Assembly: GCA_012838955.1 (NCBI GenBank)
Contig: DUOH01000048.1
Location: 1 to 56,139, forward strand
Origin: Bacillota bacterium
GTDB taxonomy: Bacteria; Bacillota; UBA4882; UBA10575
DNA: 56,139 nucleotides
Direction: 5' to 3'
The notes under the pieces are model-generated. The model saw nothing but the letters and a program-made list of their open reading frames with translations. It did not search any database and was not told the DNA's origin. The position numbers were made by a program, and so were the translations under genes. Positions 40,790 to 51,286 of the stretch are shown here, in pieces; position 1 is the stretch's first letter; each line of letters opens with the position of its first letter.

Positions 40790-42403
40790 CTATTTATCTG
40801 TTTTAGCCGTAGTCCTCTTCTTAGCCGTACTCTTTTTGGTTGTAGACTTTTCCGCCGAAGCCTTTTTGGTGGTCGTCGTCTTCCGGGCCGAAGCCGTTTT
40901 ACTGGATTTTTTATTCTTCGCGCTTGTGGTTGTTCTCTTCTTCCCTGTACTCTTGGTTTCACTCGCCTTCTTCACCGGTTCTTCTTCTACCTCTACTTCA
41001 GAAGCGGATGGGTCATCCACCGGTTCCTCTCTCTTCTCCGGGCTTCTACTCTTTCGATTCTTTTGATCCTTATCCGGATTCTCCCCATCCTCAACAGAAT
41101 CGTCTTCCGCTTTCGCTTCCGGGGTCAAAGGAGCTGCCATATCTTCACCGGCGGCAGTTTCTTCCTCTCCCAGCTGCTCATCGGTGAGTTGAGGTTCCTC
41201 ATTGACCTGTTCTTCATTATCTTCATGATCAATAATATCATCAGATACCCTCTCCCTCACTTGCCGCTCCAACTCATTCAAATACTCATCCTCTATTCCC
41301 ATGTCACACCCTTGGGCAATATACTTTAAGAATGAGGTGCAGACCCCAAAGAGTTGATCCGTGTCCGCCAAACCTTCCACCGTAGTATCTTTATATACCA
41401 AGACCCGGTCTTTGAGGAATTTTTGGAAATAACCGAACTTTAAAGCAATCTTAATCTTTTGGTGGTTAAGGTTTTTAGTCTCCAGAAAGATACGCAAGGG
41501 ACCATAATAGCCTAGATAAGCATAGAGGCGACCAAAATATTTCAACGCATGATGCCATAATACATACAGCCTGGGCATAGGCACATAGTCGATTCTTTCC
41601 AGAAAATCATAGCCCATACTAAATAAGAATTCTCCGTTCTTCAGTAACTTTATAATGAAGACAATATTATGATTCTTAAAGATCGCCTCAAAATGATCGA
41701 TCTTCGGCTGCAGAACACTGGAGATCCCCGACAGTTGGGAGAAGAGTTTCGAACCTAACATTAATTCTTCCCCGGTCCTAAACAAGGTATTAATCAATTC
41801 CAAGTCCGCGGCCACCGGCATGGCCACTATCTTCACTTCCGCCTCCACATTATTACGCAGATAAAGACTGTTATATCTCTCAATCAGCGCACTTCGAGGA
41901 GCGGCTGCTTTAAAATATAAATCTCTCACTTCATCTTCTGTTAATAATCTGTTCTCTTGTTCCTTCCTTATATACCAACACAAATGCTTTTCCCAAGTAA
42001 AAGCGTGAGGTCGCTCCAAGCTTTGAGGAATGTGCATTACTAAATAAAAACCGCCCTTGGCCGCTTCGATCTGGTGAAAATAACAAAGGAGTTTCGGCGA
42101 AATCTGGGACTCAATGATCCTAATAATCTCCTCTTCTCCGGTAGCGGTCTTTAAAGGCGTCAGTTTTCCGGCACATCTACCCAGCAGGTCATCCCAGAAT
42201 CCCTCAATCCCAAAGATGATGACTCCTCCCAAGGAATTGGCAATTGCAGTGATATTTGTTAATAACTCGTACCTCCCGCCCAACGGATCAGGATCAATCT
42301 CTTTTATATATTTCAGCCTGGTGGTTTCTTGTTGTCTTTCAGCGCATAACATCTGAAGGTCCTCTTCAGTCCAGGTTTTCAATGGTCGATTAATCGGAAA
42401 CAA
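40790..42403 (-). CDS. AlbA_2/Schlafen-type domain protein with a histone-H1-like Lys/Ala/Thr-rich tail
   Basis: A 537-residue protein. The N-terminal part (about 14-165) resembles an AlbA_2 domain (RQQETTRLKYIKEIDPDPLGG, then ITAIANSLGGVIIFGIEG), a putative nucleic-acid-binding or regulatory module. A middle region (170-400) is not recognised. An acidic linker (about 400-475) leads to a tail of about 60 residues (478-537) made almost only of Lys, Thr, Ala, Ser and Arg (KKSTAKKRTTAKTDK), like bacterial H1-type proteins. The start is TTG 42401-42403 with GGAGGAG upstream. DNA or RNA binding is likely for the tail; the cellular role is unknown. Confidence 0.7.
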   Translation of the reverse strand: MFPINRPLKTWTEEDLQMLCAERQQETTRLKYIKEIDPDPLGGRYELLTNITAIANSLGGVIIFGIEGFWDDLLGRCAGKLTPLKTATGEEEIIRIIESQISPKLLCYFHQIEAAKGGFYLVMHIPQSLERPHAFTWEKHLCWYIRKEQENRLLTEDEVRDLYFKAAAPRSALIERYNSLYLRNNVEAEVKIVAMPVAADLELINTLFRTGEELMLGSKLFSQLSGISSVLQPKIDHFEAIFKNHNIVFIIKLLKNGEFLFSMGYDFLERIDYVPMPRLYVLWHHALKYFGRLYAYLGYYGPLRIFLETKNLNHQKIKIALKFGYFQKFLKDRVLVYKDTTVEGLADTDQLFGVCTSFLKYIAQGCDMGIEDEYLNELERQVRERVSDDIIDHEDNEEQVNEEPQLTDEQLGEEETAAGEDMAAPLTPEAKAEDDSVEDGENPDKDQKNRKSRSPEKREEPVDDPSASEVEVEEEPVKKASETKSTGKKRTTTSAKNKKSSKTASARKTTTTKKASAEKSTTKKSTAKKRTTAKTDK

Positions 42404-46169: not shown

Positions 46170-46694
46170 CTACTCCCTGAAAAAATTCTGATACTCAGCA
46201 AGAATTCTCTGTGCTACCTCTCCGGGTATCAATCCATCGGTGCAGATTACCAAATCACTCTGGCTGTATTGGCTCTCTCTTTCCTCCAGTAAGGTCTGTA
46301 AGGCTGAGAACGGGTCCCTCCCCGCGAGCAGCGGCCGTCCTTCTCCACTGCCCACTCTCCTCGCTAACTCCTGGAGACTTGTTTTTAAATAAATGACCAC
46401 CCCGTGATCTTTCATACACTGTAGATTGGCTGGGACGGTCACCGCGCCTCCTCCGGTAGCAATTACTGCTTCCTTCTGACTAACCGCTTTGGCGATCACC
46501 GCCGTTTCCAGGCGGCGAAAATACTCTTCCCCATACCTGGTAAAGATCTCCGGGATTGGCATCCCACTTTCCTCCACAATTAACCGATCCGTATCAAGAA
46601 AGACCCAGCCCAGCTCTTTAGCTAGCAACGAACCCACCGTTGTTTTACCCGACCCCATGGGACCGATCAAAATTAAGCATTTTCCGGACGCCAT
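46170..46694 (-). CDS. aroK: Shikimate kinase
   Basis: A 174-residue P-loop kinase phosphorylating shikimate. The P-loop is LIGPMGSGKTTVG, followed by FLDTD, the shikimate-binding YFRRLE and the lid GRPLL. ATG 46692-46694 overlaps the end of aroC by 22 bases, so the two are translated together. Confidence 0.95.
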   Translation of the reverse strand: MASGKCLILIGPMGSGKTTVGSLLAKELGWVFLDTDRLIVEESGMPIPEIFTRYGEEYFRRLETAVIAKAVSQKEAVIATGGGAVTVPANLQCMKDHGVVIYLKTSLQELARRVGSGEGRPLLAGRDPFSALQTLLEERESQYSQSDLVICTDGLIPGEVAQRILAEYQNFFRE

Positions 46695-47902
46695 TTAATC
46701 ATCTCCGTATACCTTTGCCAAGCCGCATGGATCTCCGGGAGCGAATCTCCGCCGAACTTTTGCAGGTAAGCGTCGGCCAAAACCCAAGCCACCATAGCCT
46801 CGGCTACCACAGCTGCCGCTGGCACCGCCGTCAGATCTGACCGTTCTACCGCCGCCGTTACTTGCTGTCCGGAACACAGATCCACGGTCGGAAGGCCGTT
46901 GTAAAGGGTGGGTATGGGCTTCATCGCTACCTTGATCATCAGCGGCTCCCCATTAGTCATTCCGCCTTCAAGCCCACCGGCGTGATTCGTCTTTCTGTAG
47001 TAACCCCGTTCCGGCGTATAGTAAATAGGGTCATGGACCGCTGATCCCGGCATCCCGGCGCCGACAAAGCCTAAACCGAATTCCAACCCTTTAATCCCGG
47101 GAATACTTATAATCGCTTGTGCCAGTAAACCATCCAAGCGCCGGTCCCAATGAACATGAGAACCTAAACCCGGAACTACCCCAGTGGCATAGACGGTAAA
47201 GATCCCGCCCAAGCTTTCGCCTTGCTTCGCGGCAAGATCAACCTCCTTCTTCATCTCCTGATTAGCTGCTGGATCACTACAGCGAAAGAGCGTTTCATCT
47301 ACTACTTGCTGTTCCCGAGCAGAGAGGACTCTGGGTTCTCCCCCACACACCCTCCCAATTTGGAGAACATGACTACCAATAAATACTCCGAACCTGGCTA
47401 GGAGGATCTTGGCAAAAGCCCCCACCCCTACTCTGACTGCGGTCTCACGGGCACTGGCTCTCTCCAAAACATTTCGCAGATCGGAGAAGCCATACTTCAA
47501 AGCACCGGACAGATCGGCATGTCCGGGCCGGGGCGCCGTTACTTCCGATTGTACAGTAGTCAATCTCTGATCAGCCTCAATCCTGACCCGCGTCTCCCCA
47601 TCCTTCTCACGTCTTCCATTAACATCCGCCAAGGGAGACATCACAGCCGCCCAGTTCGCCCAGTCACGATTCTTGATCTGAATCGTAATCGGTGAACCCA
47701 AAGTCCGTCCTTTCCGGATCCCCGAAATAAAAATGACTTCGTCTTTTTCCACTTTCATCCGTCCGCCCCGGCCGTACCCCTTTTGCCTACGTTGAAGCTC
47801 TCTATTAATCTGCTCTTGCTCAACCTCTACTAAAGCCGGATAACCTTCGATCACCGCAGTCAATCCCGGCCCATGGGACTCCCCGGCTGTTATAAACCGC
47901 AC
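46673..47902 (-). CDS. aroC: Chorismate synthase
   Basis: A 409-residue FMN-dependent enzyme making chorismate from EPSP. Signatures are FITAGESHGPGLTAVIEGYPA, RRQKGYGRGGRM, the block RPGHADLSGALKYG, RASARETAVRVG and HAGGLEGGMTNGEP. It is about 20 residues longer than most, at the C-terminus. The start is GTG 47900-47902 with GGAGG 8 bases upstream. It opens the run aroC-aroK-aroB-aroQ; aroA and aroF are elsewhere. Confidence 0.95.
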   Translation of the reverse strand: MRFITAGESHGPGLTAVIEGYPALVEVEQEQINRELQRRQKGYGRGGRMKVEKDEVIFISGIRKGRTLGSPITIQIKNRDWANWAAVMSPLADVNGRREKDGETRVRIEADQRLTTVQSEVTAPRPGHADLSGALKYGFSDLRNVLERASARETAVRVGVGAFAKILLARFGVFIGSHVLQIGRVCGGEPRVLSAREQQVVDETLFRCSDPAANQEMKKEVDLAAKQGESLGGIFTVYATGVVPGLGSHVHWDRRLDGLLAQAIISIPGIKGLEFGLGFVGAGMPGSAVHDPIYYTPERGYYRKTNHAGGLEGGMTNGEPLMIKVAMKPIPTLYNGLPTVDLCSGQQVTAAVERSDLTAVPAAAVVAEAMVAWVLADAYLQKFGGDSLPEIHAAWQRYTEMIKWRPENA

Positions 47903-48120: not shown

Positions 48121-48143
48121 AAAAAAAGGCCGTTTCCGGCCTT
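48121..48143 (-). terminator. Rho-independent terminator after comFB
   Basis: A 7-bp stem, AAGGCCG (48126-48132) with CGGCCTT (48137-48143), and a 4-base loop, followed on the minus strand by seven Ts. The stem overlaps the comFB stop codon. Confidence 0.8.
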
Positions 48144-48429
48144 AATCCAGCTTTATTTTATCTGGATCATGTTTCGGTCTTTTTGAAACCTTCTCAATAC
48201 CCTCCATCACCGCCAGCAAAGCATCGGCCCGTACCTGACGATCCGACTGCTCCACCCGGGCAAAGATCTCCCCTTCGCGGGTAACTGCGTATTTACCCTT
48301 CAAGCGGGTGAGGGCAATAGCAATAATGTCCTGTGTACACTTTTCACAGAAACAACAGTTAGGATGCATCCCCTTTATCTCATTTAAAACTTCCACGGCG
48401 ACTTCTTCAGTATAATTCTTCAACCCCAC
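48142..48429 (-). CDS. comFB: ComFB-family late competence protein
   Basis: A 95-residue protein matching ComFB: LKNYTEEVAVEVLNEI, a Cys cluster (C25, C26, C28, C31 in NCCFCEKC), DIIAIALTRLKGKYAVTREGEIF and VRADALLAVMEGI. ComFB proteins are linked to natural competence and type IV pili, and relatives bind cyclic dinucleotides. The start is GTG 48427-48429 behind GGGGGG. It lies 34 bases after a secretin gene and before a terminator, so the two form a unit; a control role over the secretin or pilus machine is an inference. Confidence 0.82.
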   Translation of the reverse strand: MGLKNYTEEVAVEVLNEIKGMHPNCCFCEKCTQDIIAIALTRLKGKYAVTREGEIFARVEQSDRQVRADALLAVMEGIEKVSKRPKHDPDKIKLD

Positions 48430-48463: not shown

Positions 48464-50263
48464 CTAATATTCAGGATTAGAAACCCGGTCGACCGGTACA
48501 GGCAGAATCAATACTTGGCCGGATTTTATGGCTGTAACTTCGGATAGACTATTAATCTCCATCAGTAATTCCGGATCCAAATCATATCTTTTGGCTATAC
48601 GCCAAAGCGTTTCTCTTGGTTTTACTTGATAGAGATGATCCTCGGGAATCGGCAGAATCAATACGTCTTCCACAGAAAGCAAGGATGATGAGGTTAAATC
48701 ATTAGCCTGCAAAATCCGGTTCGGATCCAACCCAAATTTCCGGGCTATCCCATAAACCGTATCCCCTTTCTGTACAGTGTATGATATACGTAGACCGACT
48801 CCTCCCTCCACTGGACTGGTCTGTTTTTCTTCGGGAGTATCAGTTTTCTCCGTCACCACCACCTCTATAATAGGGATTGCCTCCTTTTTGTCGGCCGGAT
48901 ACTCTCCCTCTCCGACCAGCTCCACTTGGGTCACAACTTGCGGAACACTTTCATCTGTTCCTGACTTTTCACCGGTTATATTATAAACCTCCGTGGTGAC
49001 CGCGGTCGAAGAATTTCCGGGCGAGTCTGCCGACTGTTCTTTGCTTCCGAGGGAATCAGTCTGCGCTTTCCTCGGTGTTAGAATCAGGCAGGGCAATCTT
49101 TCCTCTCCAAAGTTATTCTTTACTGTGACTAAATCCCGGGCACGAATAATCCCCCCGATGACCGGGAGTTCCGAAAGAGCCGGCGGAATCCGCTTTTCGT
49201 CCCCTTTTGGGATTAAATTAAAACCAGTTAAGACAAAGGACTCACCCGCTTGTAGTTTTCTGGTCGCGCCGGCCTTCGTCTGGGTGATCAGCGGGATATC
49301 GCCACCCTTCGCTGTTCTTTGCCAATCAGAGATGCTGTTGACCTCAACCGCTAACTCCATAATGATCATCTTCTCTTCTGCCCTGGGGAGCAAAGCCAGG
49401 TTAATCCCGACTTCTTTATAGTCAACCAATTCTTCCACACCTTTTTCCGTAATTCTGGTAAAGATCACCGGATACCGGTCCCCGACAAAGGTGTGGGCTT
49501 TTTCTCCGTCGGTAGCAGTCAGCCTGGATTCCACAATCAGGCTGGCCCGGTTCTGCGCCTCCAGATCATCAATCTTTCGCCTCTCCACGATGTTGAATTT
49601 TAAAGGAGAGCCGGGAACCAGCCGATCATAATCAAGCCACCCCATTTTTTTCAGCACTTCCGTACTGATCTCTTCTAACCGGATCTCCACCACCAAACCG
49701 TTTTTATCCCGGTCATAACGGTTGATTAACTCACGGGCATTAGCCTGTTCAAGAGGGTTACCGGTAATCGCCAACTTTTTTGTGCCTTGTTCCACGCGGA
49801 TTCTTTCCGGTGGAACAATTGATCTGAGGCTGGATATAAGCTCACCGGGGTTAATATGATATAATTGGTACTCAACGGTCTCCTCTTCTCCCAGATTGAG
49901 CAGATTCTCAGCCTGGCCAATCATTACGGCTTTACCATCCGCGCTCCACTGACATGAGTAACCGTAAGTATCGGCCAGCAGCCCCACAACTACTTGAGTG
50001 GCGAGGTCCTCCCGGAACTCTATGGAGACCGGGCCTTGCACCGTAGAATCCATCAACAACCTAAATCCGCTGTGTTCCGCTAAATTACGTAGGGTCAAAC
50101 GTAGATCGGAACCGTAACTCCAGGATCCGCCTTCCCCTCGTACCGGAAGAGAGGCAAACAGAAAAAATAGGTATAAGAAGATGAAGACACTAAATAGACA
50201 GGTCATAGGTCTAACCCGTCCTCCGCGCATCACCGGCCCCCCTTTCCGATCCCGGAAAGACAT
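48464..50263 (-). CDS. Outer-membrane secretin with two C-terminal LysM domains
   Basis: A 599-residue secretin of the type II/IV pilus group. It has a signal peptide (about 21-44), an STN-like N0 domain (50-118), a NolW-like domain (130-185) and the secretin core (190-396) with the signature ELPVIGGIIRARD and a VLTGFNL segment. After a linker of about 95 residues come two LysM repeats (about 494-539 YTVQKGDTVYGIARKFGL, and 543-588 YQVKPRETLWRIAKRYDL). LysM binds peptidoglycan, so the channel may anchor itself. ATG 50261-50263 has AGGTGGAG upstream. It sits between aroE and comFB-aroC; pilM-P genes are not in the window. Confidence 0.9.
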   Translation of the reverse strand: MSFRDRKGGPVMRGGRVRPMTCLFSVFIFLYLFFLFASLPVRGEGGSWSYGSDLRLTLRNLAEHSGFRLLMDSTVQGPVSIEFREDLATQVVVGLLADTYGYSCQWSADGKAVMIGQAENLLNLGEEETVEYQLYHINPGELISSLRSIVPPERIRVEQGTKKLAITGNPLEQANARELINRYDRDKNGLVVEIRLEEISTEVLKKMGWLDYDRLVPGSPLKFNIVERRKIDDLEAQNRASLIVESRLTATDGEKAHTFVGDRYPVIFTRITEKGVEELVDYKEVGINLALLPRAEEKMIIMELAVEVNSISDWQRTAKGGDIPLITQTKAGATRKLQAGESFVLTGFNLIPKGDEKRIPPALSELPVIGGIIRARDLVTVKNNFGEERLPCLILTPRKAQTDSLGSKEQSADSPGNSSTAVTTEVYNITGEKSGTDESVPQVVTQVELVGEGEYPADKKEAIPIIEVVVTEKTDTPEEKQTSPVEGGVGLRISYTVQKGDTVYGIARKFGLDPNRILQANDLTSSSLLSVEDVLILPIPEDHLYQVKPRETLWRIAKRYDLDPELLMEINSLSEVTAIKSGQVLILPVPVDRVSNPEY

Positions 50264-50332
50264 ACTACTCCACCTCTTAAAATATTTCGCTGTTACCAAC
50301 CTTTTTCCTGCAAACCGGGAGAAGATGATAGA

Positions 50333-51193
50333 TCAGTAGCTCAATTCCGTTTCCAAAAACTTTTTCACCACCATCCGCATGGGTTTCTCCGGAGGCTCAA
50401 CCCCGGTCCAATGCTGAAAAGCCAACATCCCCTGGTAAAGAAGCATGCCTAAACCGTTTAAAGTTTTCAATCCGTGTTTTTTGGCTTTTTTAAGCAACTC
50501 CGTCTCCGGCGGGCGGTAGACTAGATCATAAACTAAACAAGCGGGATTAGCCTTGTCCAGGGGTAAAGGCGGCGCGGTCTCACTCTGTGGATGCATCCCA
50601 ACGGAGGTTGCGTTGACCACTAAATCCGTCTCCCCTAAATAACCGACTAAAGCCGGGTCCTCATACGAGAGGAGCTGCACAGCGAATCCGGTTTTGTCCT
50701 TAATCTGTTCCGCCAGGGCTTCGGCTCGCTGCAAAGTTCTATTGACCAAGCACAGCTCTACCGCTTCCGCCCGAACCAGAGCAAAAGCCACGGCTCTGGC
50801 TGCTCCTCCGGCCCCCAACAGCAAAACTTTCTTCCCTCGCGGTGAAAACCCCGCTTCCCTTTCCAGAGCAAGCAGTAGTCCGTCTCCGTCCGTACTATAT
50901 CCGTATAATACACCATCTTTATTCACGATGGTATTCACCGACCCCGTAAGGAGCGCATCTCCTTGGAGATGATCTAAATATGCTGTTACCGCCTGCTTAT
51001 GCGGGATTGTTATATTTACGCCTCCCAGCTCCAAACTGCGAATGGCCTGTACCGCCCCAGAAAGATTCCCGGCTGTCACCAGAAACGGCAGATAAACAGC
51101 GTTCATCTCCAAAACCTTAAAGGCTACGTTATGTAGTAAAGGAGATAAAGAATGTTCGATGGGGTCTCCAAAGATCCCATAAACACGCACCAA
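50333..51193 (-). CDS. aroE: Shikimate dehydrogenase
   Basis: A 286-residue NADPH-dependent enzyme reducing 3-dehydroshikimate. Motifs are YGIFGDPIEHSLSPLLHN, the shikimate-binding INITIPHKQAV (catalytic Lys), GAGGAARAVAFAL, VNRTLQRAE and NATSVGMHP. TTG 51191-51193 is chosen, 8 bases after AAGGGAG. The longer frame to 51274 would run through a terminator hairpin. It is separated from the other aro genes by the secretin and comFB. Confidence 0.95.
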   Translation of the reverse strand: MVRVYGIFGDPIEHSLSPLLHNVAFKVLEMNAVYLPFLVTAGNLSGAVQAIRSLELGGVNITIPHKQAVTAYLDHLQGDALLTGSVNTIVNKDGVLYGYSTDGDGLLLALEREAGFSPRGKKVLLLGAGGAARAVAFALVRAEAVELCLVNRTLQRAEALAEQIKDKTGFAVQLLSYEDPALVGYLGETDLVVNATSVGMHPQSETAPPLPLDKANPACLVYDLVYRPPETELLKKAKKHGLKTLNGLGMLLYQGMLAFQHWTGVEPPEKPMRMVVKKFLETELSY

Positions 51194-51237
51194 AGCACTC
51201 ACTCCCTTTCCATAAGGAGTTATTTCGAGATCCACAG

Positions 51238-51271
51238 AAAAAAACCTCCCTTCTTCAGTGGGAGGTTTTTT
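51238..51271. terminator. Bidirectional rho-independent terminator after the RNase J gene
   Basis: AAAAAACCTCCC and GGGAGGTTTTTT form a 12-bp stem with a 9-base loop at 51239-51271, with seven Ts on the minus strand. It lies 16 bases after the RNase J stop and just before aroE. Confidence 0.9.
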
Positions 51272-51286
51272 CAACTCTTCCTTGAT

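What the first reader, a model, noticed from the sequence alone, without database searches (positions are those of the whole stretch)
48464..50263. Secretin carrying its own pair of LysM domains
In proteobacteria the secretin PilQ is tied to peptidoglycan by AMIN domains or the separate LysM protein TsaP. Here two LysM repeats are fused after the secretin core, beyond a flexible linker of about 95 residues, and would have to lie on the periplasmic side. This may be a distinct anchoring design for diderm Bacillota.
Basis: partly seen in the sequence, partly recalled or inferred. Interest (0 to 1): 0.62.

Follow-up and report, generated by a model that had tools for sequence, protein, structure and literature searches.

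The report
Pilus secretin that outlived its pilus
This gene encodes an outer-membrane pilus-channel protein (secretin) with two cell-wall-binding LysM domains at its tail; in this bacterium and its relatives the pilus itself is gone, yet the protein has been kept, so it probably now does another job at the cell wall.

Summary
In detail: signal peptide, N0, N1, secretin core, a disordered linker of about 85 residues, then two LysM domains. The host is a sporulating diderm Bacillota; relatives in its class include a MAG labelled Hydrogenispora.

Synteny gives the origin. A relative from the same order has aroE-pilB-T-C-A-D-M-N-O-[secretin-LysM2]-comFB-aroC at this site; the window has only aroE-[secretin-LysM2]-comFB-aroC. 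It is the pilQ of an ancient pil-aro locus that lost its pilus genes. LysM-tailed PilQs in intact type IV pilus operons occur in this class and in a second diderm Bacillota class, so self-anchoring is a plausible ancestral design.

Here it no longer serves a type IV pilus. The only motor genes belong to a type II system with its own LysM-less GspD. Eight relatives (88-99% complete) lack T2SSE and T2SSF altogether yet keep the gene and comFB; dN/dS between such copies is about 0.03-0.18 in N0, secretin core and LysM. Orphans conserve the LysM pair best, and 10 of 13 lost the membrane-inserting lip. I infer a peptidoglycan-bound ring or tether; that role is untested.

The parts
48464..50299 (-). 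Orphan PilQ-type secretin with C-terminal LysM pair (ORF; ATG at 50263, alternative TTG at 50299)
50135..50263 (-). Signal peptide region (residues 1-43; hydrophobic helix 19-37)
   Evidence: sequence and AF2 helix; no signal-peptide predictor run
49910..50128 (-). N0 domain (residues 46-118)
   Evidence: VIA-align to GspD/PilQ N0 domains (4jtm Z 9.6, 4ar0 Z 9.0)
49700..49894 (-). N1 / Secretin_N ring domain (residues 124-188)
   Evidence: Pfam PF03958 weak; VIA-align 5mp2 Z 10.4, 3ezj Z 9.8
49064..49699 (-). Secretin core (residues 189-400)
   Evidence: PF00263 E 3e-17; Foldseek 6w6m PilQ E 1e-14
49118..49183 (-). Lip segment with residual secretin signature LPVIGGII (residues 361-382), helical in the model; deleted in 10 orphan relatives
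48800..49054 (-). Disordered linker (residues 404-488, pLDDT < 50)
48644..48793 (-). LysM1 (residues 491-540)
   Evidence: Pfam PF01476; 4uz3/4s3j matches
48497..48634 (-). LysM2 (residues 544-589), the best-conserved part of the protein among orphans
48142..48429 (-). comFB (cyclic-dinucleotide receptor family), kept next to the orphan secretin
   Evidence: PF10719 E 2e-20; synteny; 27/29 genomes
50333..51274 (-). aroE: upstream boundary of the lost pil operon
46673..47902 (-). aroC: downstream boundary (followed by aroK, aroB, aroQ)

Best explanation
Shown: the gene is the positional orthologue of pilQ in an ancestral aroE-pilBTCADMNO-pilQ(LysM2)-comFB-aroC locus of a diderm Bacillota lineage. 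Everything from pilB to pilO is gone from the site, and no type IV pilus ATPase is found in the genome. The two LysM domains sit after the secretin core. Inferred: in the ancestor they fixed the PilQ ring to peptidoglycan from the periplasmic side, doing in cis what AMIN domains or TsaP do in Proteobacteria. In the window lineage the orphan has a pilus-independent role whose selected feature is peptidoglycan binding, most likely as an oligomeric ring or tether holding the outer membrane, or an envelope complex, to the wall. The neighbouring cyclic-dinucleotide receptor ComFB may be its regulatory partner.
For: Synteny: G017 carries rnj-aroE-pilB-T-C-A-D-M-N-O-secretin(LysM)-comFB-aroC-aroB-aroQ-pepP-efp-spoIIIAA; the window has the same order without pil genes. 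G066 and G396, of another class, have pilMNOP-secretin(LysM)-aroC-aroK-aroB-aroQ. Tree: 13 orphans form one clade (100/99) beside pil-operon LysM-PilQs. Own genome: one GspE-type ATPase, no PilB/PilT. Eight family members lack both T2SSE and T2SSF but keep comFB and the orphan gene, whole or truncated at contig ends. In four gene pairs from genomes without T2SSE/T2SSF (G007/G003, G007/G005, G013/G014, G008/G007) dN/dS is about 0.03-0.18 in N0, secretin core and LysM domains. Conservation inverts: orphans LysM1 63%, LysM2 72%, secretin 39%; pil-operon copies 36%, 53%, 44%. Host diderm.
Against: The tether or ring role is not tested; nothing here shows peptidoglycan binding, oligomerisation or location. 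The window's genome still has a type II secretion system, so a role with it cannot be excluded there. The two conservation groups differ in evolutionary depth. The dN/dS values are pairwise counts on relatives, not on the window's own lineage, whose branch is long (1.28). Some orphans have lost the membrane lip, so an outer-membrane location for all of them is doubtful.
Confidence: 0.6

Rival explanations
1. The orphan is a second outer-membrane channel for the type II secretion system kept in this genome, with its LysM pair as wall anchor.
For: G000 keeps a GspF-K-type locus with GspD on C35 and GspE plus prepilin peptidase on C45; the window copy keeps the lip helix and a residual signature.
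Against: That locus has its own 855-aa GspD without LysM. Eight relatives keep the orphan, whole or in truncated contig-end copies, with no T2SSE or T2SSF at all. The orphan sits in an aro operon, not with gsp genes.
Confidence: 0.15
2. A working PilQ of a type IV pilus, self-anchored by LysM.
For: LysM-tailed PilQs do lie in complete pil operons in G019, G020, G012, G017 and G026.
Against: In the window's genome only one T2SSE ATPase (GspE-type) and one T2SSF gene exist and no pil genes lie at the locus.
Confidence: 0.05
3. A dead or dying gene held only because it lies inside an essential aro operon.
For: Secretin signature and lip decay in many orphans; embedded between aroE and aroC.
Against: The orphan copies not cut by contig ends are open full length (one relative, G014, has an upstream in-frame stop outside the predicted start); dN/dS is well below 1 in all folded domains, lowest in LysM2.
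Confidence: 0.07
4. A factor for sporulation or cell separation that uses the LysM pair to find septal or cortex peptidoglycan, the secretin part serving as a ring scaffold.
For: The host has the spoIIIA genes. LysM matches include SafA, SleL and DipM families. The ComFB homologue CdgR controls cell size in Nostoc (PMC12313861).
Against: LysM matches of this kind are generic; there is no linkage to spo genes beyond the old locus order.
Confidence: 0.13

Closest known systems
PilQ, type IVa pilus secretin (e.g. V. cholerae 6w6m)
   Same: N0, N1-like domain and secretin core; best Foldseek match; descends from the pilQ position of a pil operon
   Different: No AMIN domains; C-terminal LysM pair; no pilus machine in this genome; far below the NCBIfam PilQ cut-off (46.7 against 284 bits)
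TsaP (LysM protein bound to PilQ in Pseudomonas, Neisseria and Myxococcus)
   Same: LysM domain linking a pilus secretin to peptidoglycan
   Different: TsaP is a separate protein; here the LysM pair is part of the secretin chain
GspB/OutB with GspD (Dickeya T2SS anchor, PMC9239104)
   Same: A secretin ring tied to peptidoglycan
   Different: Done by a separate scaffold protein and for a type II system
OmpM of diderm Firmicutes
   Same: An outer-membrane protein with a wall-binding domain in diderm Bacillota; possible functional analogue of the orphan
   Different: SLH domain plus porin, unrelated fold
LysM pair of Thermus NlpC/P60 endopeptidase (4uz2/4uz3)
   Same: Two tandem LysM domains, about 43% identical; 4uz3 is a ligand-bound structure
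   Different: There it targets a hydrolase; here no enzyme domain is present

Membership tests
PilQ (type IV pilus secretin) | N0/N1 ring domains followed by a secretin core | tested here: met
PilQ (type IV pilus secretin) | Descent from the pilQ gene of a pil operon | tested here: met
   Synteny with G017, G066, G396 and tree
PilQ (type IV pilus secretin) | Cognate pilus machine (PilB/PilT, PilC, PilMNO) in the genome | tested here: not met
   Only GspE/GspF-type members present; PilMNO not searched genome-wide
PilQ (type IV pilus secretin) | Passes NCBIfam TIGR02515 cut-off | tested here: not met
   46.7 against 284.35 bits; the two pil-operon homologues tested also fail (170 and 232 bits)
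PilQ (type IV pilus secretin) | N-terminal AMIN domains (common, not universal) | tested here: not met
   No AMIN match at E<=0.1
PilQ (type IV pilus secretin) | Forms an outer-membrane pore | not testable with these tools
   needs biochemistry or cryo-EM
GspD (type II secretin) | Encoded with gsp genes; several N domains | tested here: not met
   The genome's GspD is the separate 855-aa protein on C35
LysM peptidoglycan-binding proteins | LysM fold with family-level match | tested here: met
   PF01476 E 6e-27, two stretches; LysM structures matched
LysM peptidoglycan-binding proteins | Binds peptidoglycan | not testable with these tools
   pull-down needed

The most novel reading that the evidence does not exclude
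A secretin exapted away from all secretion and pilus machines: a LysM-anchored ring or tether of the diderm Bacillota envelope, arisen at least twice by erosion or relocation of a pil operon around pilQ-LysM and comFB, and in one branch losing the outer-membrane lip.
Probability: 0.5. Interest if true: 0.72.

Novelty: new variant of a known kind. Interest (0 to 1): 0.62.

Why it matters
Secretins are known as the outer-membrane exits of type IV pili, type II/III secretion and filamentous phages. A secretin kept by selection in genomes with no type IV pilus or type II motor at all would show that the fold has a second life, probably structural. The finding also gives diderm Bacillota their own way of fixing a pilus secretin to the wall, against a published statement that their secretins lack distinctive domain architecture (PMC6668835), and ties ComFB to the pilQ locus in this phylum.

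Tried and rejected
Plasmid records hold no close copy: the DNA search found none, and the protein search gave only weak partial matches. A simple PilQ reading for this genome was rejected. The pseudogene reading was disfavoured by dN/dS. Whether secretin-LysM fusions occur in other phyla: the named-genome scan was seeded on a LysM peptide, and its Omnitrophota, Deltaproteobacteria and other hits gave no secretin in the same frame, so absence elsewhere is not proven. A C-terminal aromatic residue as a BAM-type signal was considered but is not testable here. Four literature searches for LysM-tailed secretins found no description of one; the library is open-access only.

Full report
What is there. 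The reverse-strand frame 48464-50263 (TTG alternative at 50299) encodes a 599-residue protein with a hydrophobic N-terminus, N0, N1, a secretin core, a linker and two LysM domains. AlphaFold2 with a 30-row alignment of window and locus proteins gives confident domains and a disordered linker at 404-488. Foldseek puts V. cholerae PilQ first (E 1e-14) and matches the LysM pair to the Thermus NlpC/P60 LysM domains. VIA-align Z-scores of about 9-10 to N0, N1 and secretin cores agree. The secretin match is weakened at its end (PF00263 positions 2-149 of 169), but a lip helix with a residual signature LPVIGGII is present.

Host. The genome is 2.52 Mb, 98% complete, and has spoIIIA genes in the window. 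It is diderm: all 29 genomes of its class carry Omp85 and OEP, and contig C45 holds BamA together with LpxD-, LptF/G-, Skp- and TamB-like frames recognised by eye. Relatives in public data are unnamed Bacillota MAGs and one labelled Hydrogenispora sp..

Where the gene comes from. Gene-order comparison is the central result. In G017, of the same order, the locus reads rnj-aroE-pilB-pilT-pilC-pilA-pilD-pilM-pilN-pilO-secretin(LysM)-comFB-aroC-aroB-aroQ-pepP-efp-spoIIIAA (its secretin is interrupted by an N-run). In G018 comFB lies inside the pil operon, before pilM. In G066 and G396, from another class, pilM-N-O-P-secretin(LysM) runs into aroC-aroK-aroB-aroQ-pepP-efp-spoIIIAA. The window has rnj-aroE-secretin(LysM)-comFB-aroC-aroK-aroB-aroQ-...-pepP-efp-spoIIIAA. 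The simplest reading is that the pil genes were lost and pilQ and comFB stayed. The tree joins 13 such orphans in one clade (100/99), next to LysM-PilQs of pil operons in the same family. Orphans of a second family (G020, G021, G022) fall in a different starred clade beside G028, whose copy follows pilMNO; well-supported branches force at least two changes of this label. G020, G021 and G012 have both a pil-operon copy and an orphan.

No pilus left. G000 has one full T2SSE match, next to a prepilin peptidase, and one T2SSF gene next to GspG-like genes. This is a type II system whose own GspD has no LysM. Eight genomes of the family (G003-G008, G013, G014; 88-99% complete) have neither T2SSE nor T2SSF, yet keep the aro-locus gene and comFB; in G004 and G006 the secretin gene is cut by a contig end.

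Selection. Pairwise Nei-Gojobori counts were made on nine pairs. In the four pairs whose two genomes both lack T2SSE/T2SSF, dN/dS is 0.03-0.18 for N0, secretin core and the LysM domains, 0.21-0.39 for N1 and 0.24-0.43 for the linker; one N0 value is uninformative because dS was saturated. Mean identities are LysM1 63%, LysM2 72%, secretin 39% in orphans, and 36%, 53%, 44% in pil-operon copies, though depths differ. Ten orphans have a lip segment of 38-47 residues against 54-57 in pil-operon copies, and their signature motif is gone; since they form one clade, this is probably one event. The model of the G008 protein lacks the lip helix. The lip is thought to drive membrane insertion (PMC7545093). 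The window copy is the most secretin-like orphan.

How far the fusion reaches. After a search of 398 phylum genomes and 59 genomes of a second class, 15 of the 31 secretin frames examined from that class carried LysM. The second class is probably Halanaerobiia: G338's single contig of 2,469,596 bases agrees with my memory of Acetohalobium arabaticum, which is a lead and not a test. All 22 secretin-bearing genomes checked have Omp85. Antunes et al. reported PilQ in Negativicutes and Halanaerobiales without mention of LysM (PMC5007114). Denise et al. found no distinctive architecture in six such systems (PMC6668835).

Mechanism. The C-terminus of a secretin core emerges on the periplasmic side (established secretin topology; not modelled here as an oligomer), so the LysM pair on an 85-residue tether can reach the wall. 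That suits a self-anchored PilQ in pil-operon relatives. For the orphan, my preferred reading is a ring or tether bound to peptidoglycan, with confidence near 0.6 for orphan plus wall role and less for the exact form. ComFB binds c-di-AMP and c-di-GMP and controls pilus formation in cyanobacteria, and its homologue controls cell size in Nostoc (PMC12313861), so a regulatory link is possible but untested.

Limits. Nearly all genomes are MAGs. The search for fusions outside Bacillota was not exhaustive. The role is inferred from conservation and gene loss only.

Noticed in passing
C-termini of secretin-LysM proteins in loci L003-L032 and L050: In the class, 23 of 24 distinct proteins end in Tyr or Phe; the copies from the other class do not. 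Unexplained; a terminal aromatic recalls outer-membrane protein signals but lies after LysM2.
   Followed up: partly
L196:1816-6809, L198, L197 (G012, G010, G011): A third secretin-LysM paralogue away from pil and aro genes; in G012 and G010 it follows a 1081-1095-aa LysM protein, which in G012 also has beta-sandwich domains.
   Followed up: partly
L199 and L200 (G012, G011 aro locus): The aro-locus orphan in these genomes is extremely diverged (branch 1.79) while a more typical PilQ sits in a pil operon elsewhere.
   Followed up: no
window 40790-42403: Schlafen AlbA_2 domain protein with a long Lys/Ala/Thr-rich tail.
   Followed up: no
L033:11117-14290 (G000 C35): A protein with RHS/YD-type repeats (by eye) lies directly after the type II secretion gene cluster.
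   Followed up: no
L154 and L155 (G224, G271): LysM-tailed secretins of 800-890 aa with several Secretin_N-type domains (four in G224), a larger variant in the other class.
   Followed up: partly
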